Below are positions 6,514-43,526 of a stretch of DNA of 64,000 nt, piece after piece. The stretch lies in the NCBI GenBank assembly GCA_022482815.1, contig JAKVOM010000001.1, positions 620,001 through 684,000 of the forward strand, read 5' to 3'. Position 1 is the stretch's first letter, and every line of letters begins with the position of its first letter. The stretch comes from Acidaminococcus sp. (GTDB lineage Bacteria; Bacillota; Negativicutes; Acidaminococcales; Acidaminococcaceae). Both the position numbers and the translations under genes were made by a program. The notes below the pieces were generated by a model. The model searched no databases. It was not told where the DNA came from and worked only from the letters and a program-made list of their open reading frames with translations.

Positions 6514-6786
6514 AAAAGGGCTGTGAAGAAATAGAAAGGCGCCTTTGGCTTTTGGCGTATGGCATTGGGCCTCATTTACAGCAGTGTGACAGTGCTTTTG
6601 ATTCAAATAAAAAATAAAAACCTGAAATTCAGTAGTTAACCTAAATTTCAGGTTTTATTTCTATAAGTTCGTAGAAAAATACCTTGGTCATTTTTCTTCC
6701 ATGGGCGGGATGCGGCCAGCGGCCGGCGACCTGCATAAAGGGGGACCGTGAAAAAATGAAATCATTTTTTCACGGTCCCCCTTGTT
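6514..6786 (+). repeat. Composite intergenic repeat, copy A
   Basis: Modules in order: GGGCTGTGAAGAAATAG; GGCGCCTTTGGCTTTTGGC; a hairpin of AAACCTGAAATT and AATTTCAGGTTT; TTCGTAGAAAAATACCTTGG; CTTCCATGGGCGG; and a terminal hairpin GGGGGACCGTGAAAAAATGA / TCATTTTTTCACGGTCCCCC with flanking A/T. It lies 12 bases beyond the stop of the YfcC-type carrier, whose terminator it probably supplies. Bases 6323-6513 before it hold nothing recognisable. Confidence 0.88.
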
Positions 6787-10895: not shown

Positions 10896-11158
10896 GAGGC
10901 TGTAACACAATAAAAGGTGCTTTTGGCCTATGGCATTCAGCCTGGTCTGCAACATCGTTTTAAAGCTTTTGATCAAATAAAATTTGATATAAAACCTAAA
11001 ATTTAGCAGTTAACCTAAATTTTAGGTTTTATTTTTATAAGTTCGTAGAAAAATGCCCTGGCAATTTTTCTTCCACGGGCAACCCGCGGCCAGCGGCCAG
11101 CGACCGGCGTAAAAGGGGCTGTGAAATAATGCGGATGCATTATTTCACAGCCCCTTTG
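10896..11158 (+). repeat. Composite intergenic repeat, copy B
   Basis: Same module order as copy A: GAGGCTGTAACACAATAAAA, GGTGCTTTTGGCCTATGGCA, central hairpin AAACCTAAAATTTAGC with AAATTTTAGGTTT, TTCGTAGAAAAATGCC, TTCCACGGGCAACCCGCGG, and the terminal hairpin GGGGCTGTGAAATAATGC / GCATTATTTCACAGCCCC. It fills the gap between the convergent genes pepT and tatC. Confidence 0.9.
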
Positions 11159-13506: not shown

Positions 13507-13690
13507 AAAAAGGGACTGTGGAATAATGCGTATAGCAATATTTCACAGTCCCTTTTTCACGCTTTCCGCAGCCCGCCCGTGGAAGAAAAATGACTAAGGC
13601 ATTTTTCTATGAATTTATAAAAATAAAAACCTAAGATTTAGGTTAACTGCTAAATCTTAGGTTTTTTATTTGAATCAAAAGCCAATGTTA
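13507..13690 (-). repeat. Composite intergenic repeat, copy C (reverse, left arm lost)
   Basis: Read on the plus strand it begins with the terminal hairpin AGGGACTGTGGAATAATGC... TTTCACAGTCCCT (13511-13552), then CCGCCCGTGGAAG, ATGACTAAGGCATTTTTC and the central hairpin CCTAAGATTTAGG... CTAAATCTTAGG. The GGCGCC-type arm is missing or degenerate. It separates the convergent HD-protein and copper-amine-oxidase-N genes. Confidence 0.87.
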
Positions 13691-22039: not shown

Positions 22040-22396
22040 AATAATGCGCGTGCATTATCTCACAGCCCCTTTTTCACGCTTTCCGCAGCCCGCCGTCCGC
22101 CCGTGGAAAAAAAGTTGCCTTTCATTAAACCAGACCGTCAGGTTGGGTATTCCTTTGGAACCTCCTTCCACGCAGTCGGAAGGAAGAGGCCACGAAGTGG
22201 CGAAAGATAGTACCAATCCAATGGGCATAAGCAAAAGGCTATAAGCGCCTTTTTAAAATAAAACCTGAAATTTAGGTTTTCTGCTAAATTTCAGGTTTTA
22301 TATCATATTTTATTTAAATCAAAACCTTCAATACACTGCGGCAGGCGAGGCTAAATGCCATAGGCCAAAAATGCCTTTTATTTTTTCACAGCTCCT
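22025..22396 (-). repeat. Composite intergenic repeat, copy E, carrying a second repeat
   Basis: Reverse orientation. The terminal hairpin GGAGCTGTGAAATAATGC / GCATTATCTCACAGCCCC starts at 22030, then CCGCCCGTGG; the central hairpin CCTGAAATTTAGG... CTAAATTTCAGG is at 22264-22295, the TGGCATTTAGCC-type arm at about 22350-22365 (reverse) and TTTTTTCACAGCTCC at the end. Between about 22110 and 22255 it is interrupted by a palindromic segment related to the 98-bp repeat at 3921-4240. It lies between the convergent arsR and His-rich-protein genes. Confidence 0.85.
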
Positions 22397-23895: not shown

Positions 23896-23911
23896 TGTTT
23901 CACGTGAAACA
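23896..23911. other. parS site 1 (outlying)
   Basis: TGTTTCACGTGAAACA, a perfect match to the Firmicute 16-bp parS bound by ParB/Spo0J. Flanks extend the palindrome by two bases on each side only. It lies about 3.4 kb from parB. Confidence 0.93.
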
Positions 23912-24062: not shown

Positions 24063-25324
24063 TCAGAAAGTTACGACGAGCTGGCTCCAGAGGGTGCGTG
24101 CATGCTGATCCTCGTGTTCCCCGCCCTTGCCTTTTAAATCATAGTAATCCAATTCGGCAATCATATTTTTTGCCAGTGTTACATTAGCGCCGACCTTGTA
24201 GCCTTTGAATCCATAACCTTCAAAAGCATCCCAGGCGCCGTCCATCGTGTGGGATATAGCCGTCGGGGCAGCCTGATCATAATAGTTGGCATAAATGCCC
24301 CAGCTGCCCGGTTTATCACTTTCCGCGCCTCCGTAACTGAGGCCGATAACGTATCCATCATCATCACCGTCTCTGTACTCATCTGCCAGGGCATCATCGT
24401 CACCCTTCAGATACATGGCAGCGACGTTGAATTTACCTGCCGTATAATCGGCACCGACAGTCCAGATATGATCATCATCATCCATACCGTTCGTCTGCAC
24501 ATTATCGGCGCTCAAGTAAGAAGCTGCCATATTCAAATTACCCCAGTTACCGCCGAGTTCTGCCTGCCAAAAGGTATCTGCAGCGCCCGTATTTGTTTCT
24601 GTCATCCAGCCGTAATGGGTTTCATTAGCCATTTTTCCATAGGCAGCAGTCAGGTAGGCATCGCCGAACGGAACCGTAGCCCGTATGGCATCCACCTGAT
24701 CATCATAGATGTAACCGTTTGCCAGAAATTCATCGTAACGGCCGGCTTTCACGCCGACAACGCCGATATTTCCCTGAAGGAATGCCCGCTGAAAGTCAGT
24801 ATCATTGTCACCTGATTCATTCTCACCCTGAAAATACTGATGGTTCTCCAACATGGCAGTATAATGCCAATTATCATTCACCTCGCCAGTAAACCAGATA
24901 CGTGTACGCAGGTCGGATTCAGATTTATCTTCTTCTCCATCAAAGACACCGCCGCTGTTATTGGCATAGCTTAGCTGTACTTCCCCAGTAATAGCAACCT
25001 TGTCGGCATTTTTTCGAGTTTTGCCATCCTAACTCCTAAGTTATCTAACTCATCGGCAAATTCACTCACAAGTTTGTCATCGGCGCCAATAGCTCCCTTT
25101 GCCAGGGCTTTAGCCACAATTTGTGCCATTTCGTACCGCGTCATCGTGCGGCCGCCCCTAAATGCCCCGTCAGGGTAGCCATCAACAATACCCGCGGCAG
25201 CCAGTTTAGCAACGGCAGCGTAAGCCCAATGACCGGCAGGTACATCAGAAAAAGGATTGGCAGCCGCGGCAGTACCGCTGATGCTGGCGGCCAAAGATAA
25301 GACAACAAGGATTTTTTTGTTCAT
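24063..25324 (-). pseudogene. ompM: SLH-domain outer-membrane porin OmpM, frameshifted
   Basis: Negativicutes tether the outer membrane to peptidoglycan through OmpM: an N-terminal signal, one SLH domain, a coiled region and a C-terminal beta-barrel. Here MNKKILVVLSLAASISGTAA is the signal and NPFSDVPAGHWAYAAVAKLA... RYEMAQIVAKAL the SLH domain. After LAKLEK the frame is lost at a run of six A (25009-25014); adding one A restores KNADKVAITGEVQLSYANNS and a barrel to the stop at 24063 with aromatic C terminus VTF. The restored protein would be about 420 residues, normal for OmpM. It is a true null, a phase-variable allele or a read error. AGGAGG lies 7 bases before the ATG. Confidence 0.85.
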
Positions 25325-27297: not shown

Positions 27298-28281
27298 TTA
27301 CACGGAAAACGTTTTCTCCGCGTCAGCGCCTTTCTTTTCCTCTTTTTTGTTTTTGATCAGCATGTATACTCTCTCAAAGTCTTCGTCACTATAATATTCA
27401 ATGACGATTTTCCCGCCATGCTGTTTTCTTCCCGGCTGAATATTGACTTTTGTGCCCAGATACTCAGTCAGTGCTTCTTCATATGTACGAGTGTAGATGT
27501 TCTGGCTCTTACGCACCGCTTTACGAGCTTTTTCCCTGGCTTTCTTTCCGCCGTTTTTAGCATTCTCGACGGCTTCCATAATTGCTTTTTCCTTCAGGCC
27601 ATTTTTCTCACCCGTTACGTATTCTTCTACCATGCGGGCGGACCATCCCTCCTCCTGCGCACGGTGTGCCAAAGTAACCATCTGGTCTTTATCCTTGAGG
27701 CCCAGGAGCGGGCGAACCTGTCCCATCGTCAAGGCTTTAGCAGCTACCATCTCTGAAATCTCATCCGGCAGATTAAGGAGCCTGAGTGAATTGGCAACTG
27801 CTGTACGGCTCTTTCCAAGCCGTTTTGCCACTTCTTCCTGAGTCAGGGACAAGGTTTCCATCATGGTCTTGATACCACGAGCCTCTTCCATCGGATTCAG
27901 GTTGCTCCGCTGCATATTTTCAATCAGAGCTACTTCCATCATGGTTTTATCATCGTAAGAACGAATGACGACCGGCACTTTAGTAAGACCTGCATTCTTA
28001 GCAGCACGCCAGCGGCGTTCGCCTGCAACGATTTCGTACTGCCGCCCCTTTTTACGGACAATCAGAGGCTGAATGATTCCGCTTTCCTTTACTGATGCAG
28101 TTAGTTCCTTCAGAGCCTCTTCGTCAAATACATGACGAGGCTGATAAGGGTTCGGGACCAGATTCTTTACAGAAATCTCCCCTACTGTTTCTCCGGACTG
28201 TTTATCCGGCACGGCCTGTTTCATTGGCCCGAACATACTATCCAGACCGTTTCTGCCCAATCCGCCTTTTTTACTTGGCAC
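27298..28281 (-). CDS. parB: Chromosome-partitioning protein ParB/Spo0J
   Basis: ParB is a CTP-dependent DNA clamp that loads at parS, spreads and recruits SMC at the origin. The 327-residue protein has the N-terminal CTPase domain (VPNPYQPRHVFDEEALKEL, IVAGERRWRAAKNAG, LIENMQRSNLNPMEEA), a helix-turn-helix (LTQEEVAKRLGKSRTAVANSLRLLNLP) and a lysine-rich linker plus C-terminal dimerisation domain. The start overlaps the parA stop by 11 bases. Five perfect parS sites lie in this window. Confidence 0.97.
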   Translation of the reverse strand: MPSKKGGLGRNGLDSMFGPMKQAVPDKQSGETVGEISVKNLVPNPYQPRHVFDEEALKELTASVKESGIIQPLIVRKKGRQYEIVAGERRWRAAKNAGLTKVPVVIRSYDDKTMMEVALIENMQRSNLNPMEEARGIKTMMETLSLTQEEVAKRLGKSRTAVANSLRLLNLPDEISEMVAAKALTMGQVRPLLGLKDKDQMVTLAHRAQEEGWSARMVEEYVTGEKNGLKEKAIMEAVENAKNGGKKAREKARKAVRKSQNIYTRTYEEALTEYLGTKVNIQPGRKQHGGKIVIEYYSDEDFERVYMLIKNKKEEKKGADAEKTFSV

Positions 28282-29035
28282 GACGCAGCACCTCCCGGGT
28301 TAAAGCTTTATAGGCTTCCGCAGCTTTCGAGTGCGGATCATATGCCGTAATCGGCATTCCATAGCTGGGGGCTTCTCCCAGCCGTACACTTCTGGGTATC
28401 AATGTCCGGTAAAGGAGATTCGGGAAATGTTCCTGTACTGCCTTTACCACATCGTTGGACAAATGTGTCCGGCTGTCTGCCATTGTCATAACAATACCTT
28501 CCACATACAGATCCGGATTGCTGGATGCTTTGATACGTTCCACGGACTGCAGCAGCTGTGCTACGCCTTCCAAAGCGTAGAATTCGCATTGAATCGGTAT
28601 GATGACAGAATCCGCTGCAGTCAGTGCATTGATGGTCAGAAGGCTGAGTGACGGCGGGCAGTCAATTAAAATATAATCATACATGTCACGAACCTTATCG
28701 AGTGGCTTTTTCAAGCATTTGGCCCGGTTCTTTTTGTCGATCATATCAATTTCGGCGCCGGCTAAATTCACCGTGGCAGGCGCGACAGACAGGTTTTTCC
28801 ACTGTGTCGGCGTGATGATTTCTTCCATCCGGACACCATTAATCAGCACATCATACATATCATGTTTTAATTCATTTTTGTTGATTCCAAGGCCGCTCGT
28901 CGCATTTCCCTGGGAATCAAGGTCGACCAGAAGGACTTTTCTGCGCGGGCTTGCCAGGCAGGCAGATAAATTAATGCTTGTCGTGGTCTTACCTACGCCG
29001 CCTTTCTGGTTGGCAATGGCGATTACGTGAGACAT
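28271..29035 (-). CDS. parA: Chromosome-partitioning ATPase ParA/Soj
   Basis: A 254-residue deviant Walker ATPase that acts with ParB in origin segregation and, in Bacillus, regulates DnaA. Walker A ANQKGGVGKTTTSINL is at residues 7-22, LVDLDSQGNATSGLG follows, and Walker B is YILIDCPPSLSLLTINAL. The ATG at 29035 (MSHVIAIANQKGG) is supported by AGAAGGAAG upstream; an in-frame GTG/ATG further out is unlikely. The first parS of the cluster lies 112 bases upstream, so ParB spreading may affect this promoter. Confidence 0.97.
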   Translation of the reverse strand: MSHVIAIANQKGGVGKTTTSINLSACLASPRRKVLLVDLDSQGNATSGLGINKNELKHDMYDVLINGVRMEEIITPTQWKNLSVAPATVNLAGAEIDMIDKKNRAKCLKKPLDKVRDMYDYILIDCPPSLSLLTINALTAADSVIIPIQCEFYALEGVAQLLQSVERIKASSNPDLYVEGIVMTMADSRTHLSNDVVKAVQEHFPNLLYRTLIPRSVRLGEAPSYGMPITAYDPHSKAAEAYKALTREVLRRAK

Positions 29036-29136
29036 GGACTTCCTTCTTTCTCTCAAGTAAGTAATAAATATCAGTAACTGCTTTCTATTCTAACACAAAA
29101 GAAGAAAGCGCGGGGTAAAAAGTAGAGATATTTTTC

Positions 29137-29172
29137 TGTTTTTCAATGTTTCACGTGAAACATTGAAAAACA
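29137..29172. other. parS site 2 in a 36-bp perfect palindrome
   Basis: Core TGTTTCACGTGAAACA at 29147-29162. Ten bases each side (TGTTTTTCAA / TTGAAAAACA) extend the perfect inverted repeat to 36 bp. Confidence 0.95.
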
Positions 29173-29279
29173 ATTATCGACCGCAAGAAGCAAAATCTCA
29201 TTAAACTATTATCACGTAACTAGCTATGGTCCTTTTTCCATGCAGCCAATAAGAAAAAGCTATTTTTCATCTGATGCAC

Positions 29280-29321
29280 TCACAAAATATAATGTTTCAC
29301 GTGAAACATTATATTTTGTGA
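29280..29321. other. parS site 3 in a 42-bp perfect palindrome
   Basis: Core at 29293-29308. Flanks TCACAAAATATAA / TTATATTTTGTGA make a perfect 42-bp palindrome, able to form a cruciform. Confidence 0.95.
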
Positions 29322-29376
29322 ATTGATTATCAAGAAAATATTTCATCAATACAAAAACGTGCTTAATCTTTTTATA

Positions 29377-29422
29377 AAATAAGGGTCCGATGTTTCACGT
29401 GAAACATTGAGTCCTTATTTTC
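29377..29422. other. parS site 4 in a 46-bp near-perfect palindrome
   Basis: Core at 29391-29406. AAAATAAGG at the left and CCTTATTTT at the right pair fully; a few mismatches lie between these arms and the core. Confidence 0.95.
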
Positions 29423-29429
29423 CATAATA

Positions 29430-29565
29430 CCAAAGACTGTGCGGAGCCTTCTTATTTCCCCAGACTACATGGCACTGTATTCACAGCCACTCCTCCCATG
29501 AACTCCATAGTAATAATACAGCCCTGCACAGTCCTCTGATTCCGGAGATCTTCTTTCCGAAATCA
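29430..29565 (-). ncRNA. Candidate structured RNA beside parS site 4
   Basis: A -10 TATAAT (complement at 29571-29576) would start a transcript at about 29565. Its first bases form TGATTTCGG / CCGGAATCA, then GAGGACTGTGC pairs with GCACAGTCTTT (closing stem, about 29435-29542), enclosing CTGTATT / AATACAG and CTATG / CATGG hairpins. No protein frame fits. A -35 and a terminator are not clear. No known RNA family was recognised. Confidence 0.35.
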
Positions 29566-29576
29566 TACTTATTATA

Positions 29577-29822
29577 CTCTCTTATTTTTTTGTCTTTGAG
29601 GGTAATAAACAGGACATAAAATAAAATACAGTTCTATATAATAATAAAAATTAAAGCAGCAGTGCCCTTAAAAGAGAGTCTGTAAAATCAGAGATCTGTG
29701 TAGCCTCTATTTCGATCTGTTCATAGCCAGATTTCTTTTTCATTTAAGTGTTTTCATCTTATGATTATAACATCTGTGTGGAATATATCTTAATGAGATA
29801 ATCCGATTCTAGCCATTTATCA
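29577..29822. other. AT-rich intergenic stretch, no gene
   Basis: Part of the 860-base gap between parA and the Abi gene. Apart from the parS sites and candidate RNA described separately, nothing recognisable is seen. Confidence 0.5.
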
Positions 29823-29870
29823 CAAGTATGAAAAAAGCATTGCATTCTCACACAAAAACCTCCATACTTG
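29823..29870 (+). promoter_or_regulatory. Inverted repeat in the leader of the Abi gene
   Basis: CAAGTATG (29823-29830) and CATACTTG (29863-29870) flank a 32-base gap that ends just before the ribosome site AGGGGAGGGGG. Possible operator or leader hairpin. Confidence 0.4.
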
Positions 29871-29898
29871 AATCAAAGAAAGAGGGGAGGGGGATATT

Positions 29899-30837
29899 GT
29901 GTCGGAACCTGTCACAAGAACGAGTTTTCTTCCTGTAAAAGTACTCATTCACCAAATGAAACAAGAAGGAATTACTTTCCATCACATTTCCGAAAAGAAA
30001 GCAAAAAAAGTTTTGACAGAGGAGAGTTACTGCTTCAAGGTCATGGCCCAGGCCGCTAATTACGATACAGTCATTAATCATAAGGGACAGCGTCAATACA
30101 TTCATCTAGATTTTGCCTATCTTGCCGAACTGACTGCACTTGACCTGCGTCTAAGAAGTCTTGTTATTCAGATGTGCCTTGATATCGAAAATTCTCTCCG
30201 CAGTCTGCTCTTTCAGGAAATTACGGCAAATCCAGATGCAGAGGAATCTGAAATTATCGCAGCCTGGGATCCACACAATGAGCACCGTCATCAGCTGAAT
30301 GATAATCTCAGCTCCTCGTACTGCAAAAGCCTCGTCGCAAAGTACAGCCCCGGTTTTCCCCTCGCTGTAATGCTGGAACTCACTCATTTTGGAGCCTTAT
30401 CCCGCTTTACTGTATTCTATGACAAACGGTATCCTCATCGTATCCCTTTCGATGTCAGTCTCCTTGGTCCGGTTCGTGATCTGCGGAATGCATCAGCGCA
30501 TCATAACTGTCTTCTCTTTGATGTCCGACACGACTCCGGTGGTCCCATCAATCCAATCATTGCTGCCTTTGCAGAGCGTCATTGTATAAAAGGGTGGAAG
30601 ATATGGCTCCGAAATAAACCCCTTCATGACCTTGCCTGCCTGATTTATCTCTATCCCCGTATTGTTAGAGACAAGAACCGCTGTCATAAGACCTGCAAAA
30701 TCTTAGAGAAGTTTTTCAATAAGCGCATGCTTCGTCATAAATCCTGGTTTCGGCGAAACGCGGCACTCCGAAATGCCTATAGAATGATGAAGCTACTTTT
30801 TGAAGCGGTAGCGAAAGAACAGGCCTGGAACCGCTAA
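29899..30837 (+). CDS. Abi_2 family (AbiD/AbiF-like) HEPN protein
   Basis: A 312-residue protein of the Abi_2 family, named for abortive phage infection. N-terminal signatures are VKVLIHQMKQEGITF... EESYCFKVMAQAANYD and DFAYLAELTALDLRLRSLVIQMCLDIENSLRSLL. The HEPN RNase motif R-x4-H is RNASAH at residues 196-201. Such proteins are thought to be RNases that stop translation during infection; activity here is inferred. The GTG start is supported by AGGGGAGGGGG upstream. It stands alone among parS sites, with no obvious antitoxin gene next to it. It could serve phage defence or be a house-keeping relic. Confidence 0.82.
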   Translation: MSEPVTRTSFLPVKVLIHQMKQEGITFHHISEKKAKKVLTEESYCFKVMAQAANYDTVINHKGQRQYIHLDFAYLAELTALDLRLRSLVIQMCLDIENSLRSLLFQEITANPDAEESEIIAAWDPHNEHRHQLNDNLSSSYCKSLVAKYSPGFPLAVMLELTHFGALSRFTVFYDKRYPHRIPFDVSLLGPVRDLRNASAHHNCLLFDVRHDSGGPINPIIAAFAERHCIKGWKIWLRNKPLHDLACLIYLYPRIVRDKNRCHKTCKILEKFFNKRMLRHKSWFRRNAALRNAYRMMKLLFEAVAKEQAWNR

Positions 30838-30965
30838 TAAATAAGGTCAGGCATCAATTGGCCGAGAAGGTAACATTTCTAATCGGTCTCTGTCGGAACC
30901 CTGTATCATTTTCTCTCTGATTTAAAAAGAGCGGGGGAGAGCAAAAGAATTTTTGCATGACAGTA

Positions 30966-30989
30966 TGAATGTTTCACGTGAAACATTCA
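30966..30989. other. parS site 5 in a 24-bp palindrome
   Basis: Core TGTTTCACGTGAAACA at 30970-30985, extended by TGAA/TTCA. It lies 130 bases after the Abi gene. Confidence 0.95.
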
Positions 30990-31075
30990 CATCCCTGAAA
31001 AAATTTTGCTTCATATCGTGTGCAGCTTATAAGCATAATCGAAAACGGCATTGAGAATATTTATTCCAAAGACAT

Positions 31076-31125
31076 AAAAGAGCCCTGGTGTTCGGCATTT
31101 TTGCCGGATTCCAGAGCTCTTTTTT
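31076..31125. terminator. Terminator between the Abi and XRE genes
   Basis: AAAAGAGCCCTGG / CCAGAGCTCTTTT enclosing a second small hairpin (CGGCA/TGCCG), with T6. It serves the convergent XRE gene and possibly the Abi gene. Confidence 0.85.
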
Positions 31126-31133
31126 ATTTGACA

Positions 31134-31493
31134 TCATTCCCAGTGGATAAGTCTCTTTTCCAGATCTGTCATAGAAACAAGATCTAAAACATCGACTCCA
31201 AGCGCCTCTGCAACATCTACCAGAGTGGAGAGAGGTACACTGTCATTATAGGTTCCCCGTTCAATCCGGGAAATGGTATCCGGATGAAGGTGAGCCCGCT
31301 CTCCAAGTTCGGCCTGACTCAAACCTTCTGAATCAATGCCGCACAACATACGGTAGTACCGCACTTTTGCACCGATAAATTGACACAGTATTTTCTTTTT
31401 GTCCCCCATAGCCTTTTCTGCCGTTTCCGCCGTGCCGCTTTCTCTGCCCGTACTGGCCGCATCCTTTCCCGGCTCCACATCATCCATGGGCAT
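31134..31493 (-). CDS. XRE-family helix-turn-helix regulator
   Basis: A 119-residue protein. Residues about 40-105 form an XRE domain: VRYYRMLCGIDSEGLSQAELGERAHLHPDTISRIERGTYNDSVPLSTLVDVAEALGVDVLDLV. The first 30 residues are acidic and low in complexity with no good ribosome site, so translation may start at the ATG near 31409. Upstream lies an inverted repeat that may be its own operator. Its target is unknown. Confidence 0.8.
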   Translation of the reverse strand: MPMDDVEPGKDAASTGRESGTAETAEKAMGDKKKILCQFIGAKVRYYRMLCGIDSEGLSQAELGERAHLHPDTISRIERGTYNDSVPLSTLVDVAEALGVDVLDLVSMTDLEKRLIHWE

Positions 31494-31501
31494 GGTTCGA
31501 G

Positions 31502-31541
31502 GAAGTTAAACTTCACATACCAAAAACCAATTCGTATGTGA
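31502..31541 (-). promoter_or_regulatory. Inverted repeats upstream of the XRE gene
   Basis: GAAGTTAAACTTC (31502-31514) is an odd-length palindrome, and TTCACATAC (31512-31520) with GTATGTGAA (31533-31541) is a 9-bp inverted repeat. Overlapping dyads 10-50 bases before an XRE gene suggest autoregulation. Confidence 0.5.
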
Positions 31542-31690
31542 AATGATAGCTAAGATGCGCATTGCCGCACGGCAGTTCCATATCCTAAAACCGCCATGCA
31601 GACAGGCAAGGCTTCACCTATGTGATTTAATTTTTTACAGCGGTGCTGCCCAAAACCTTTCACGGAAAGAATAGTGCGACAGCAGCCAGA

Positions 31691-31721
31691 TTTTTACAAA
31701 AGCCATTACGCTTTGTAAAAA
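31691..31721. other. Inverted repeat of unknown role
   Basis: TTTTTACAAA and TTTGTAAAAA separated by 11 bases. Hairpin-forming, but with no adjacent gene end. Confidence 0.4.
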
Positions 31722-31764
31722 GAATAAATGGAACTACGACTCAAAAGCGGTACCAAGGTTCAAA

Positions 31765-31976
31765 AAGAAAAAACTAAACCTCCCTCATCATGACTGCAAG
31801 CCGATAGAACAAGCTATCGGACCTCGACTCAGCATGCGTCTCAGGGCTTAAAATGCACTCACAACGCCCTCTTTCTATCCCAGGTGCTGTGTAACAACTG
31901 CCGGGGACCGCATGTGTTCGGATTATTCGGTTCTGAAGCCCCCTTATATGGCAAAAGATCAGAACCATGGAACCAC
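31765..31976 (-). ncRNA. Candidate structured RNA with extended -10 promoter and U-rich end
   Basis: TGCTACAAT on the minus strand (TACAAT complement at 31983-31988) predicts a start near 31976. The transcript contains GGTTCTGA / TCAGAACC (31929-31966) and a perfect CCGATAG / CTATCGG hairpin near 31812-31831, many short GC helices, no protein frame, and ends in a U-rich tract (TTTTTTCTTTTT) near 31765. A length of about 210 bases and this shape fit a 6S-like or similar house-keeping RNA, but I could not match a family. Confidence 0.4.
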
Positions 31977-32097
31977 ATCCTCATTGTAGCACAAAATAGA
32001 GGAGACTACAGGGTAAAATTGTGGACAGTGTTCATAAGTACATCTGTACAGTCAGTTTTCTTGCGGTTTTGCTTACATAGATGCCTACGAAAAAAGG

Positions 32098-33556
32098 GGT
32101 TCTTCACGGAAATTTGTGGACTAAAAGACATTTGACTATTGAAAAAGGACATTAACTCCTCCAAAATATAATCGTCGAAACCATACCTTGGGAGGAGAAA
32201 ATGTCCTTTACTAATTACACTATTCAAAATAATGCAGAATGTCAAGATGTCTTTTACAATGTCTTCATGCCGGAAGACCCTTTTGATGATAGCCAGGAGA
32301 TTGTTATTTGCAGTGAAAAGAAATATACCGACTTCCGTTGTCCTAAATGTGGTCAGAAAATGTATTCTTACGAGCCATTTTCCACCTACTTGAAAAGTTT
32401 TCCTGCGTATCCTGAGCATACCAGGATGATCCGCTTTGAAGGGCATCGCTTCCGTTGCTCCTGCTGCCATGCAACCATCACTGAGCCTATTCCCTTTAAA
32501 TATCCCGGAACTCGCATTACCATGAGGGCTTCCCTTTGGATTGAGACGCTGCTTCGTAATGGAATCCCTGCCAATGCAATTGCTAAGATGTCAGGAATTC
32601 ACTGGAGCACGATTCGCTATGTCCACAAACAGCTCATGGATGAATCTCTCGATAAATATGAAATGGAATTGGAGCTGACCTCTTACAAGCCCCGTTTCCT
32701 GGCCATCGATGAGTTTGCTATCCATAAGGGACACACTTATGCCACTTGCGTCATGGATTTAGCGACAGGTTATATTCTCTGGGTTGGCAGAGGTCGGGCG
32801 ATAGCTGACTTCGAGCATTTCTTCAAGGAATATGATCAGACGAAGCTGACAGAGGTCAAGGCAGTCGCCATGGATATGAACGCTTCCTACAACAAGCTGG
32901 TACAAGAACATCTGCCGCAAGCTAAGGTCGTGTATGATCGTTACCACATGCAGGCTCAATTCGGGAAGGAAGTATTAGGTGTAGTAAGACTTGATGAGGC
33001 CAGAATGCATAGGGATAAAGCCAACGACATGCAAGAAGCATTAAAAGACGCAAGTGCTGAAGACAAGCCGGCTTTGAAAGAGCGGATATCCGAGGAAAAG
33101 AAGAACTACCGCACATTGAAGAAAGTCCGCTGGCCGTTACTCACCAATGAAGATAGGCTGAATCCTAAGAGCAAAGAAGCGTTGCAGGCCATCTTTGCAG
33201 AGCACGAGGATCTGGCAATATGTTATTCCATGAAGGAAGAGATGGTAGCCCTCTATGAATTAAGGGACTATGACAAGGCTCTTGCAGGATGGAAGCGCTG
33301 GTTTAAAGCTGCACTAGGCAGCGGGATTCCGGCCCTGGTTAGGTTTGCTAAGATTAAGCTGCCAAGGATAGACGGACTGGTGAACCATGCCCTGTACCCG
33401 ATAAACACAGGGAAGCTTGAGGGTTTCAACAACAAGATTAAAGTGGCCAAAAGAAGAGCGTACGGATACAGAGATGATGAGTACTTTTTCACGTTAATTC
33501 GCTACCTCTCAATTCCGACCGTAAGAGGTATACTCCCGAAAAAAACGTGAAGAACC
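32098..33556 (+). mobile_element. Intact ISL3-family insertion sequence
   Basis: The ends are GGTTCTTCACG (32098-32108) and its inverse CGTGAAGAACC (33546-33556). An 8-base duplication AAAAAAGG lies on both sides (32090-32097 and 33557-33564), as expected for ISL3. One transposase gene fills the element of 1459 bases. The duplication is unchanged, which points to a fairly recent insertion. Confidence 0.95.
32201..33550 (+). CDS. ISL3-family DDE transposase
   Basis: A 449-residue transposase. It has an N-terminal zinc-binding region (CPKCGQK... CSCCHA), a helix-turn-helix near 110-135 and a DDE catalytic core: D in FLAIDEFAIHKGH, D in VKAVAMDMNASYN, and E in GKLEGFNNKIKVAKRRAYG. Full length with no frameshift, so probably active. 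GGGAGGAG precedes the ATG. Confidence 0.95.
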   Translation: MSFTNYTIQNNAECQDVFYNVFMPEDPFDDSQEIVICSEKKYTDFRCPKCGQKMYSYEPFSTYLKSFPAYPEHTRMIRFEGHRFRCSCCHATITEPIPFKYPGTRITMRASLWIETLLRNGIPANAIAKMSGIHWSTIRYVHKQLMDESLDKYEMELELTSYKPRFLAIDEFAIHKGHTYATCVMDLATGYILWVGRGRAIADFEHFFKEYDQTKLTEVKAVAMDMNASYNKLVQEHLPQAKVVYDRYHMQAQFGKEVLGVVRLDEARMHRDKANDMQEALKDASAEDKPALKERISEEKKNYRTLKKVRWPLLTNEDRLNPKSKEALQAIFAEHEDLAICYSMKEEMVALYELRDYDKALAGWKRWFKAALGSGIPALVRFAKIKLPRIDGLVNHALYPINTGKLEGFNNKIKVAKRRAYGYRDDEYFFTLIRYLSIPTVRGILPKKT

Positions 33557-33602
33557 AAAAAAGGGCCGTGAAAATGGAATTTCATTTCCACAGTCCTTTT
33601 TT
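33557..33602. terminator. Terminator hairpin of rsmG, disrupted at its foot by the IS
   Basis: AAAAAAGGGCCGTGAAAATG / CATTTCCACAGTCCTTTTTT. It matches the terminal hairpin of the composite repeats. The IS target duplication is the A-run and first GG of this stem, so the hairpin was rebuilt by the duplication. Confidence 0.85.
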
Positions 33603-33611
33603 ATTTATAAA

Positions 33612-34349
33612 TTATTTTTTAGCGCCAACCTTCACAGCCAGCGGTTTTTTCGAGGCGACACCGGGCCGGCGGGGATATTGACTGCTTGTCGGTTTAATTT
33701 TTTCAACAGTAATAATATAGCGTTTATCCGTGAGTCCGGGCAGTGTGAGGTGCCGGATATCAACAATTTTACCGCCGAGGATAGAAATGGCCTGGCGGCC
33801 TTCTTCGGTTTCTTCCATTCCTTTGCTGCCTTTCATCGCGTAGAATACACCCCCAACGCGTACGAGCGGCAGACAGTATTCTGCGAGCACCGGCATTGGA
33901 GCCACAGCACGGGCAACAACGACATCAAACTTTTCACGAAGCTTTGGATCGCGGCCGGCTTCTTCGGCCCGGGCGTGGCAGCACCGAACCTGTCCAAGTC
34001 CCAGCTCCTGCACCACGTTCTCCAAAAAATGCAGGCGTTTAGCCAGGGAATCAATCAAGGTAAGGCGCATGGTCGTGTCATAAATTTTAAGCGGCAGGCC
34101 CGGAAATCCTGCACCCGTTCCCACATCAGCAATGGTCCGGTTATGAAATCGTTTGGCATCGTACACGGTCAGCGAATCTACCATGTGTTTCAAGGCCACT
34201 TCATCAGGATCCGTAATTGCTGTTAAATTGAGGCTTTTATTGGTTTCAAGGAGCATCTCTTCATACCGGATAAAGCGTGCTTCCTGTTCTTCTGAAAGCG
34301 GACATCCGATAGCATCCATGCCCTGACGCAGCGTCTCCAGATAACTCAT
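33612..34349 (-). CDS. rsmG: 16S rRNA (guanine-527-N7)-methyltransferase RsmG
   Basis: A 245-residue SAM-dependent methyltransferase acting on the 30S subunit. The SAM motif I is IADVGTGAGFPGLPLKI, preceded by LNLTAITDPDEVALKHMVDSL, a family signature; later VVARAVAPMPVLAEYCLPL. The last 25 residues are a basic tail (QYPRRPGVASKKP). The start overlaps the mnmG stop by 4 bases; it is the last gene of the rpmH-to-rsmG run. Confidence 0.96.
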   Translation of the reverse strand: MSYLETLRQGMDAIGCPLSEEQEARFIRYEEMLLETNKSLNLTAITDPDEVALKHMVDSLTVYDAKRFHNRTIADVGTGAGFPGLPLKIYDTTMRLTLIDSLAKRLHFLENVVQELGLGQVRCCHARAEEAGRDPKLREKFDVVVARAVAPMPVLAEYCLPLVRVGGVFYAMKGSKGMEETEEGRQAISILGGKIVDIRHLTLPGLTDKRYIITVEKIKPTSSQYPRRPGVASKKPLAVKVGAKK

Positions 34350-43289: not shown

Positions 43290-43526
43290 AAAAAACAGGA
43301 CTGTAAAAAATCAAAAGGCGCTTTTGGCTTTTGGCATATGGCATTTAGCCTCGTCTGCAGCAGTGTGGCAGGACTTTTGATTCAAATAAAATGTGATATA
43401 AAACCTAAAATTTAGCAGATACCCTAAATTTTAGGTTTTATTTTTCTTCTACGGGCGAACTGCGGAAAGGCGTGAAAAAAAGGGCTGTGAAGTAATGCAC
43501 ACGCATTATTCCACAGCCTTTTTTTA
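43290..43526 (+). repeat. Composite intergenic repeat, copy G
   Basis: GGACTGTAAAAAATC, AAGGCGCTTTTGGCTTTTGG, central hairpin AAACCTAAAATTTAGC with AAATTTTAGGTTT, TTCTACGGGCG, and the terminal hairpin AGGGCTGTGAAGTAATGC / GCATTATTCCACAGCCT with T7. It lies between the convergent transferase gene and thiM. Confidence 0.9.

What the first reader, a model, noticed from the sequence alone, without database searches (positions are those of the whole stretch)
29137..29422. Three parS sites embedded in 36-46 bp palindromes
The 16-bp parS core is normally flanked by little symmetry. Here the inverted repeat continues perfectly to 36 and 42 bp at two sites and nearly so to 46 bp at a third, with different flanking sequence each time. 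That is not explained by ParB recognition of the core alone. It suggests cruciform formation, a second protein binding the flanks, or a role in ParB clamp loading or origin pairing.
Basis: seen in the sequence. Interest (0 to 1): 0.7.

Follow-up and report, generated by a model that had tools for sequence, protein, structure and literature searches.

The report
Centromere sites inside hairpin-forming DNA palindromes
In this gut bacterium's genus the short DNA sites that mark the chromosome for segregation often sit in the middle of much longer mirror-image sequences; at one operon end these look like transcription stop signals as well, while those next to the segregation genes have no proven job and may be by-products of DNA copying errors.

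Summary
Three exact parS cores lie upstream of parA, in perfect 36-bp and 42-bp palindromes and a broken 46-bp one (19 of 23 pairs). It is genus-wide: in nine Acidaminococcus-like genomes 15 of 25 parS sites have arms of at least 14 bp, and each genome has at least one. Upstream of parA, positions 13-18 pair in 81% of cells (30% after shuffling; 0 of 20,000 shuffles) at about 0.05-0.3 bits of sequence information. Symmetry is conserved, not sequence.

Two kinds exist. Behind the mnmG-rsmG(-noc) operon, parS forms the hairpin of a terminator-like structure in 9 of 12 genomes with parS there by an automatic rule, a tenth by eye; the other two have short arms and a separate hairpin. The window's sites are mostly the second kind: upstream of the parA promoter, s1 and s2 without U-tract, s3 terminator-like.

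For the second kind I favour replication template switching (quasi-palindrome extension) at the maintained parS palindrome; its direct footprint was not found. Selection for DNA structure or transcription insulation is not excluded. Cruciform use by ParB seems unlikely, since extrusion breaks the parS duplex. New variant of known kinds.

The parts
29137..29172 (.). s1: perfect 36-bp palindrome around parS core 29147-29162; about 110 bp upstream of the parA start codon; T-rich left and A-rich right arm in the parA sense, so not terminator-like
29280..29321. s2: perfect 42-bp palindrome around parS core 29293-29308; no clear U-tract, although the scan lists it as terminator-like on the + strand
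29376..29421 (.). s3: broken 46-bp palindrome (19 of 23 pairs; all four mismatches are transitions) around parS core 29391-29406; terminator-like outer arms (AAAATAAGG...CCTTATTTT)
23896..23911 (.). parS core 3' of the SLH porin gene; arm only 10
30970..30985 (.). parS core between the convergent Abi_2 and XRE genes; arm 12
28271..29035 (-). parA (Soj), AAA_31; start codon taken as ATG at 29035; promoter-like TGTTAGAAT between s1 and the start codon (read by eye)
27298..28281 (-). parB (Spo0J) with ParB_N, HTH_ParB and ParB_C; carries the R and G of parS-specific ParB
33566..33593 (-). ordinary (non-parS) terminator-like hairpin directly after rsmG in this genome, where four sister species have a parS hairpin
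33612..34349 (-). rsmG, last gene of the mnmG-rsmG pair

Best explanation
The palindromes are ParB centromere sites (parS) whose flanks have become inverted copies of each other. Two processes seem to be at work in this genus. (a) At the end of the mnmG-rsmG(-noc) operon, parS is the upper part of an intrinsic terminator hairpin: GC pairs and an A/T tract are added symmetrically around the core, and selection for termination keeps the pairing. (b) In the cluster upstream of parA, which holds the window's s1 and s2, the flanks carry no clear U-tract and lie upstream of the parA promoter. There the most likely origin is template switching at the replication fork. The nascent strand folds back on the 16-18 bp palindrome that selection on ParB binding keeps intact, copies its own flank for some 6-13 nt, and returns. 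This makes a perfect palindrome in one event, with arbitrary sequence. s3 is terminator-like and is perhaps a decayed or displaced operon-end site. Shown: the anatomy, the symmetry without sequence, the operon-end placement, and the lack of a clear U-tract at s1 and s2. Inferred: termination, template switching, the promoter, and the origin of s3.
For: (a) parS lies 13, 25, 53 and 18 bp after the rsmG stop in G001, G002, G004 and G005. In six other genomes it lies 13-99 bp after the noc stop with arms 15-19. By an automatic rule (stem, at least 3 GC pairs, loop 3-8, at least 5 T in 8) the parS hairpin is terminator-like in 9 of these 10; G004 fails the rule because its T-tract lies inside the arms. 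In G028 and, by eye, G012 a separate hairpin precedes parS, and there the arms are only 11 and 8. One stem pair differs on both sides between G057 and G058 (A-T against G-C). Over all 44 sites with arms of at least 14, 35 have terminator polarity, against 51 of 124 control sites. (b) 13 parA-upstream sites: pairing 0.82 at positions 9-18 (null 0.41) and 0.81 at positions 13-18 (null 0.30), 0 of 20,000 shuffles in both. Eight of 13 arms are at least 14 without internal mismatch: four of 18, two of 20, one of 21, one of 14. By the polarity index only three of these eight are terminator-like, against 27 of 29 other hairpins of the genus. Template switching is reported to create perfect stems in one event (PMC8794818, abstract and opening text), to turn imperfect into perfect inverted repeats (PMC3820800, passages), and to be stimulated by proteins crosslinked to DNA in E. 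coli (PMC6357072, abstract).
Against: The one-arm-conserved footprint of a template switch could not be shown; no close enough sister genomes were held. The only hint is an A-tract on the parA side shared by G000, G003 and G006, with a matching T-tract on the other side only in G000 and G003 (by eye). If the process were general, other groups should show it as often; they show 29 of 228. Noc-site-like palindromes show none of 27, though most of those lie in open frames. SbcD is present in 7 of 7 genomes of the genus tested, so its loss is not the reason. Arms persist around mismatched cores: in L190 with two core mismatches and in G002 with one core mismatch in a 22-bp arm; both would fit selection on the arms as well. 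For (a): termination was not measured, G010 has a second weak terminator candidate before parS, and G003, G007 and G008 have neither a parS nor a rule-passing hairpin there, so a terminator hairpin at this place is not always detectable.
Confidence: 0.5

Rival explanations
1. All extended palindromes, those upstream of parA included, are transcription barriers (full or degenerate terminators). The centromere carries its own insulator, so that RNA polymerase does not run through the ParB nucleation site or into the parA promoter.
For: Operon-end sites look like terminators, and arms are short at the two operon ends with a separate hairpin before parS. s3 and G002 c have outer A/T tracts, and the scan lists s2 and s3 as terminator-like on the + strand. 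Hairpins are predicted for s1 to s3, -15.7 to -25.3 kcal/mol as RNA.
Against: s1, s2 and six other parA-upstream sites with arms of at least 14 have at most 5 T in 8 on either strand, and five of these eight lack terminator polarity. In G000, G002 and G003 the sites lie between divergent reading frames, where no transcript is expected to need stopping.
Confidence: 0.22
2. Selection for a DNA structure or for a second, structure-reading protein: hairpin or cruciform extrusion at parS regulates ParB loading or parA expression.
For: Symmetry is kept with almost no sequence information. Arms stay perfect around cores with one or two mismatches in G002 and L190.
Against: Extrusion would convert the parS duplex into two half-site stems and should compete with ParB binding (reasoning from the sequence). 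A search for parS, ParB and cruciform listed no paper on such a link (listing only). Three of nine genomes of the genus (G001, G004, G005) have no parS near the parA start.
Confidence: 0.15
3. ParB of this genus reads a longer site, and the flanks are part of its recognition sequence.
For: Position 9 is A and position 10 mostly A at the parA-upstream sites, so the effective core is about 18-20 bp.
Against: Beyond position 11 the sequence information is at most about 0.3 bits at these sites, and several sites of the same genomes have no extended arms. ParB carries the usual parS-specific residues.
Confidence: 0.05
4. The palindromes are copies of a mobile repeat (REP- or MITE-like) that happens to carry parS.
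For: Repeated hairpin families do exist in this genome.
Against: The only sequence common to the three sites is the core plus a few bases, and flanks differ between sites and species.
Confidence: 0.03

Closest known systems
Chromosomal parS of ParABS (Spo0J/Soj type)
   Same: Exact 16-bp consensus, several copies next to parAB, ParB with the usual domains and specificity residues
   Different: Cores often sit in 28-50 bp palindromes with non-conserved flanks in this genus; parS appears to double as an operon terminator in it and in related genera
Intrinsic (Rho-independent) terminators
   Same: Operon-end parS hairpins have stem, small loop, T-tract and the right place after a stop codon
   Different: The apical stem is a protein-binding centromere site; s1 and s2 of the window lack a clear U-tract and are upstream of a promoter-like element
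Quasi-palindrome / template-switch mutations (PMC8794818, PMC3820800, PMC6357072)
   Same: Perfect inverted repeats of arbitrary sequence grown outward from an existing palindrome
   Different: Here inferred for a centromere site; the one-arm footprint is not shown
Noc-binding sites (NBS) of the paralogue Noc
   Same: Related palindromic sites of a related protein
   Different: 27 exact NBS-like cores read in the family show arms of 7-8 only; noc was not found in nine genomes of the window's genus

Membership tests
Chromosomal parS centromere site | 16-bp TGTTTCACGTGAAACA core | tested here: met
   five exact cores in the genome, all in the window
Chromosomal parS centromere site | located with parA/parB | tested here: met
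   ParA and ParB by Pfam at 27298-29035; parS at 23.9-31.0 kb
Chromosomal parS centromere site | cognate ParB has parS-type specificity residues | tested here: met
Chromosomal parS centromere site | ParB binds there in vivo | not testable with these tools
   needs ChIP-seq
Intrinsic terminator (window s1) | U-tract after the stem, 3' of a gene | tested here: not met
   at most 3 T in 8 on either strand; upstream of the promoter-like element of parA
Intrinsic terminator (window s2) | U-tract after the stem, 3' of a gene | tested here: inconclusive
   4-5 T in 8, listed as terminator-like by the loose scan, but no polarity and a divergent intergenic region
Intrinsic terminator (window s3) | U-tract after the stem, 3' of a gene | tested here: inconclusive
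   5 T in 8 on both strands, but four mismatches and no gene ending next to it
Intrinsic terminator (operon-end parS of related species) | stem, U-tract and position 3' of a gene | tested here: met
   rule passed in G001, G002, G005, G010, G021, G032, G042, G057, G058; G004 by eye only; termination itself not measured
Template-switch quasi-palindrome | perfect inverted repeat with abrupt ends | tested here: met
   s1 and s2 here, six more parA-upstream sites in sisters
Template-switch quasi-palindrome | one arm ancestral, the other replaced by its inverse copy | tested here: inconclusive
   only a hint from G000/G003/G006 A-tracts (by eye); no close sister pair
REP/MITE-type mobile repeat | copies share flank sequence | tested here: not met
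   flanks unrelated

The most novel reading that the evidence does not exclude
In Acidaminococcus the centromere is built as a self-insulating or structure-forming element: natural selection keeps perfect strand symmetry, and not sequence, for 14-25 bp on each side of the parS centre. ParB nucleation is thereby coupled to RNA- or DNA-hairpin formation, which shields the site from transcription or gates ParB loading.
Probability: 0.2. Interest if true: 0.75.

Novelty: new variant of a known kind. Interest (0 to 1): 0.5.

Why it matters
If operon-end parS sites are true terminators, a bacterial centromere and a transcription stop share one sequence. That offers a simple way to keep RNA polymerase off the ParB loading site, and it explains part of the variation in parS context between species. 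If the parA-upstream palindromes come from template switching, parS becomes a natural reporter of quasi-palindrome mutation at a protein-bound palindrome. If the symmetry is selected, ParB loading or parA expression depends on a hairpin, which ParB clamp models as I know them do not include.

Tried and rejected
Chance: rejected. Mobile repeat: rejected. Extended sequence recognition by ParB: unlikely, with little sequence information beyond position 11. Loss of the hairpin nuclease SbcCD: rejected for SbcD, present above cut-off in 7 of 7 genomes of the genus tested; SbcC was not tested. General behaviour of ParB/Noc-type palindromes: 27 exact NBS-like cores had arms of 7-8 only, but most lie in open frames, so this is a weak control. 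RNA hairpin in parA mRNA: unlikely, because the promoter-like element is downstream of s1 (by eye). Rfam found only two tRNAs in the window at the gathering threshold.

Sister-pair search for a template-switch footprint: 297 sites and 439 pairs compared, 60 rows printed. The only clear close pair with a long palindrome that I looked into (L190/L197) has identical arms in both, so it is uninformative on origin.

Limits of the counts: the ORF test used to call sites 'coding' misfires in the GC-rich genus, so for that genus I used gene maps. Sites with one core mismatch were counted only where fetched DNA showed them. Of 117 parS sites in genus g8, 23 were read. Order- and class-level searches listed mostly already known loci; phylum level was not searched. 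In other groups only sites in fetched loci were counted (at most 30 loci per genome search; 80 loci). Gene contexts are from tblastn and open frames, not from annotation.

Literature: searches (parS with palindrome/flanking/CTP; terminator/inverted repeat; cruciform; intrinsic terminator; stem-loop) gave no listing that describes extended parS palindromes or parS terminators; only titles and abstract starts were read for these.

Full report
WHAT IS THERE. The window (G000:C1:620001-684000, one 3,057,042-bp contig) holds the parA-parB locus: ParB 27298-28281(-), ParA 28271-29035(-). All five exact parS cores of the genome are in the window, at 23896, 29147, 29293, 29391 and 30970. s1 is a perfect 36-bp palindrome, s2 a perfect 42-bp palindrome, and s3 a 46-bp quasi-palindrome with 19 of 23 pairs. 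The other two parS sites have arms of only 10 and 12. Predicted RNA hairpins of s1 to s3 range from -15.7 to -25.3 kcal/mol.

WHICH ORGANISM. The sister genome G001 is a single contig of 2,329,769 bp, the published length of Acidaminococcus fermentans VR4 (PMC3035267, passages).

IS IT MORE THAN CHANCE. In 300 kb of other DNA from G000, G001 and G002, ten loop-less palindromes have arms of 8 or more and none has 14 or more; in 200 kb from two other families, ten have 8 or more and one has 15. Perfect hairpins with stems of at least 12 (loop up to 8; one of them loop-less) number 12, 14 and 3 per 100 kb in G000, G001 and G002, against 7 and 5 in the samples from other families. Of the 29 in the genus, 27 have terminator polarity. 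So long hairpins are not rare in this genus, but they are almost all terminator-like, and loop-less ones of this length were seen in it only at parS.

GENUS-WIDE PATTERN. I mapped 25 parS sites (23 exact, two with one core mismatch) in nine genomes of the genus. 15 have arms of at least 14 bp, and every genome has at least one. Over all sites, pairing at positions 9-18 is 0.76 against 0.40 when right flanks are dealt out anew (0 of 20,000 shuffles), while sequence information falls to about 0.05-0.4 bits beyond position 10. Outside the genus the frequency is lower: 8 of 42 in other genera of the family, 4 of 23 read in genus g8, 3 of 71 in family f24, 5 of 38 in f13, 9 of 50 in parA loci of other groups, 0 of 4 others of the class, together 29 of 228. 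In other genera of the family, one of 20 sites inside long open frames has such arms.

KIND ONE: OPERON-END, TERMINATOR-LIKE. In G001, G002, G004 and G005 a parS lies 13, 25, 53 and 18 bp after the rsmG stop codon, with the layout A-tract, GC stem, parS, GC stem, T-tract. In most related genera mapped, a ParB-like paralogue (noc; Noc-type residues checked in five of its sequences) follows rsmG, and parS lies 99, 30, 17, 37, 13 and 15 bp after its stop in G010, G021, G032, G042, G057 and G058, with arms 15-19. Of 19 operon ends read (eight in the genus, 11 elsewhere), 12 have parS within 100 bp. Ten of these have arms of at least 15, and nine of the ten pass an automatic terminator rule; G004 does not, because its T-tract lies inside the 25-bp arms. 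In the remaining two, G012 and G028, a separate hairpin precedes parS and the arms are 8 and 11; the G028 hairpin passes the rule, the G012 one has a large loop and was seen by eye. G010 has a second weak candidate before its parS. Among the seven ends without nearby parS, G000, G018 and G031 have an ordinary rule-passing hairpin, G003 one by eye, and G007, G008 and G027 none found. Between G057 and G058 one stem pair has changed on both sides. Across all 44 sites with arms of at least 14, 35 show terminator polarity, against 51 of 124 controls.

KIND TWO: PALINDROMES UPSTREAM OF parA. Thirteen sites lie upstream of parA in six genomes; G001, G004 and G005 have none there. Eight have arms of at least 14, and two more (s3; G002 c, a 22-bp arm with one core mismatch) are near-palindromes; G008's single site has no extension. 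Pairing at positions 13-18 is 0.81 against 0.30 (0 of 20,000 shuffles), where the sequence carries about 0.05-0.3 bits. The site nearest parA lies upstream of a TGTTAGAAT-type promoter-like motif in most of these genomes (by eye), so these palindromes are probably not in the parA transcript. s1 and its counterpart in G003 have T-rich left arms and A-rich right arms, the opposite of a terminator. Three of the eight long-armed sites have terminator polarity, against 27 of 29 other hairpins of the genus. s2 has at most 5 T in 8, within its own AT pairs, although the loose scan lists it. s3 and G002 c look terminator-like.

HOW IT MOST LIKELY WORKS. Kind one is best read as an intrinsic terminator with a centromere site as its upper stem. 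Kind two is best read as quasi-palindrome extension by template switching at a palindrome that selection for ParB binding keeps intact. This can produce perfect arms of arbitrary sequence in one event (PMC8794818, abstract and opening text; PMC3820800, passages), and covalent protein-DNA crosslinks stimulate such switching in E. coli (PMC6357072, abstract); the parallel with bound ParB is mine. The direct footprint is missing. The nearest hint is that G000, G003 and G006 share an A-tract on the parA side of the core, while the complementary T-tract on the far side exists only in G000 and G003 (by eye).

EVIDENCE AGAINST MY READING. Other groups show far fewer such sites, although by the usual ParABS biology their parS sites are bound by ParB too. 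SbcD is present in 7 of 7 genomes of the genus tested, so its loss does not explain the excess. Exact NBS-like palindromes show no extension in 27 of 27 cases, though mostly in open frames. In L190 and in G002 the arms are perfect around a core with mismatches, which suits selection on the arms. These points keep selection for structure or insulation alive.

CLOSEST KNOWN AND NOVELTY. ParB of the window carries residues of parS-specific ParB (PMC7383237, passages), so the protein side looks like ordinary ParABS. The review PMC7022226 (passages) describes parS as a conserved palindrome, and its main text holds no occurrence of 'terminator'. Five literature searches (listings only) showed no description of parS terminators or extended parS palindromes in the open-licence library. 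I rate this as a new variant of a known kind.

Noticed in passing
G022-G025 (genus g8): L028-L031, L059-L068: Four genomes of one related genus carry 40, 23, 35 and 19 exact parS sites scattered over many contigs, against 0-5 in the other genera of the family; several of those read are followed by an AGGGGGACAT-like motif. Noc of three of them has the usual Noc residues, and none of the four has an exact 14-bp NBS core.
   Followed up: partly
G196 and G184 (family f13): 40 and 52 exact parS cores per genome; in G196 many stand in arrays about 35-77 bp apart on several contigs, perhaps plasmid- or phage-borne centromere arrays.
   Followed up: no
window 29036-33611: The genus seems to have lost noc: no noc-like hit in 9 of 9 genomes (two of them only 85-90% complete), just weak 31-32% partial hits in five, whereas seven other genomes of the family in the same search have a second ParB-like protein. 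In the window the interval from rsmG to parA holds Abi_2, XRE and ISL3 transposase genes.
   Followed up: partly
window 6738-6783, 11112-11157; L069 13916-13962; L070 13359-13400: A family of long perfect hairpins with TGTGAA(A)...ATG-type arms, also present in G001; could be terminators carrying a repeated motif, like uptake-signal pairs.
   Followed up: no
window 10989-11032, 13625-13666, 22258-22301, 43398-43441: Repeated double palindromes of the form AAACCTAAAATTTAG-N8-CTAAATTTTAGGTTT and variants (also L069 14126, L070 2367); may be paired operator sites or a small repeat.
   Followed up: no
window 24063-25324 (-): The SLH-domain porin gene is split over two frames here and is also interrupted in G007, but reads through in one frame in G003 and G006 over the compared stretch.
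   Followed up: partly
L164:11841, L169:9217, L170:10174, L166:9358: Other genera of the family keep a parS core inside the parB coding sequence; the window's parB lacks it, and these four coding sites have arms of only 8-10.
   Followed up: partly
L197:1567 and L190:2093: Orthologous parS palindrome in two related species: 11-bp outer arms identical and perfect in both, but the core of L190 has two mismatches.
   Followed up: partly
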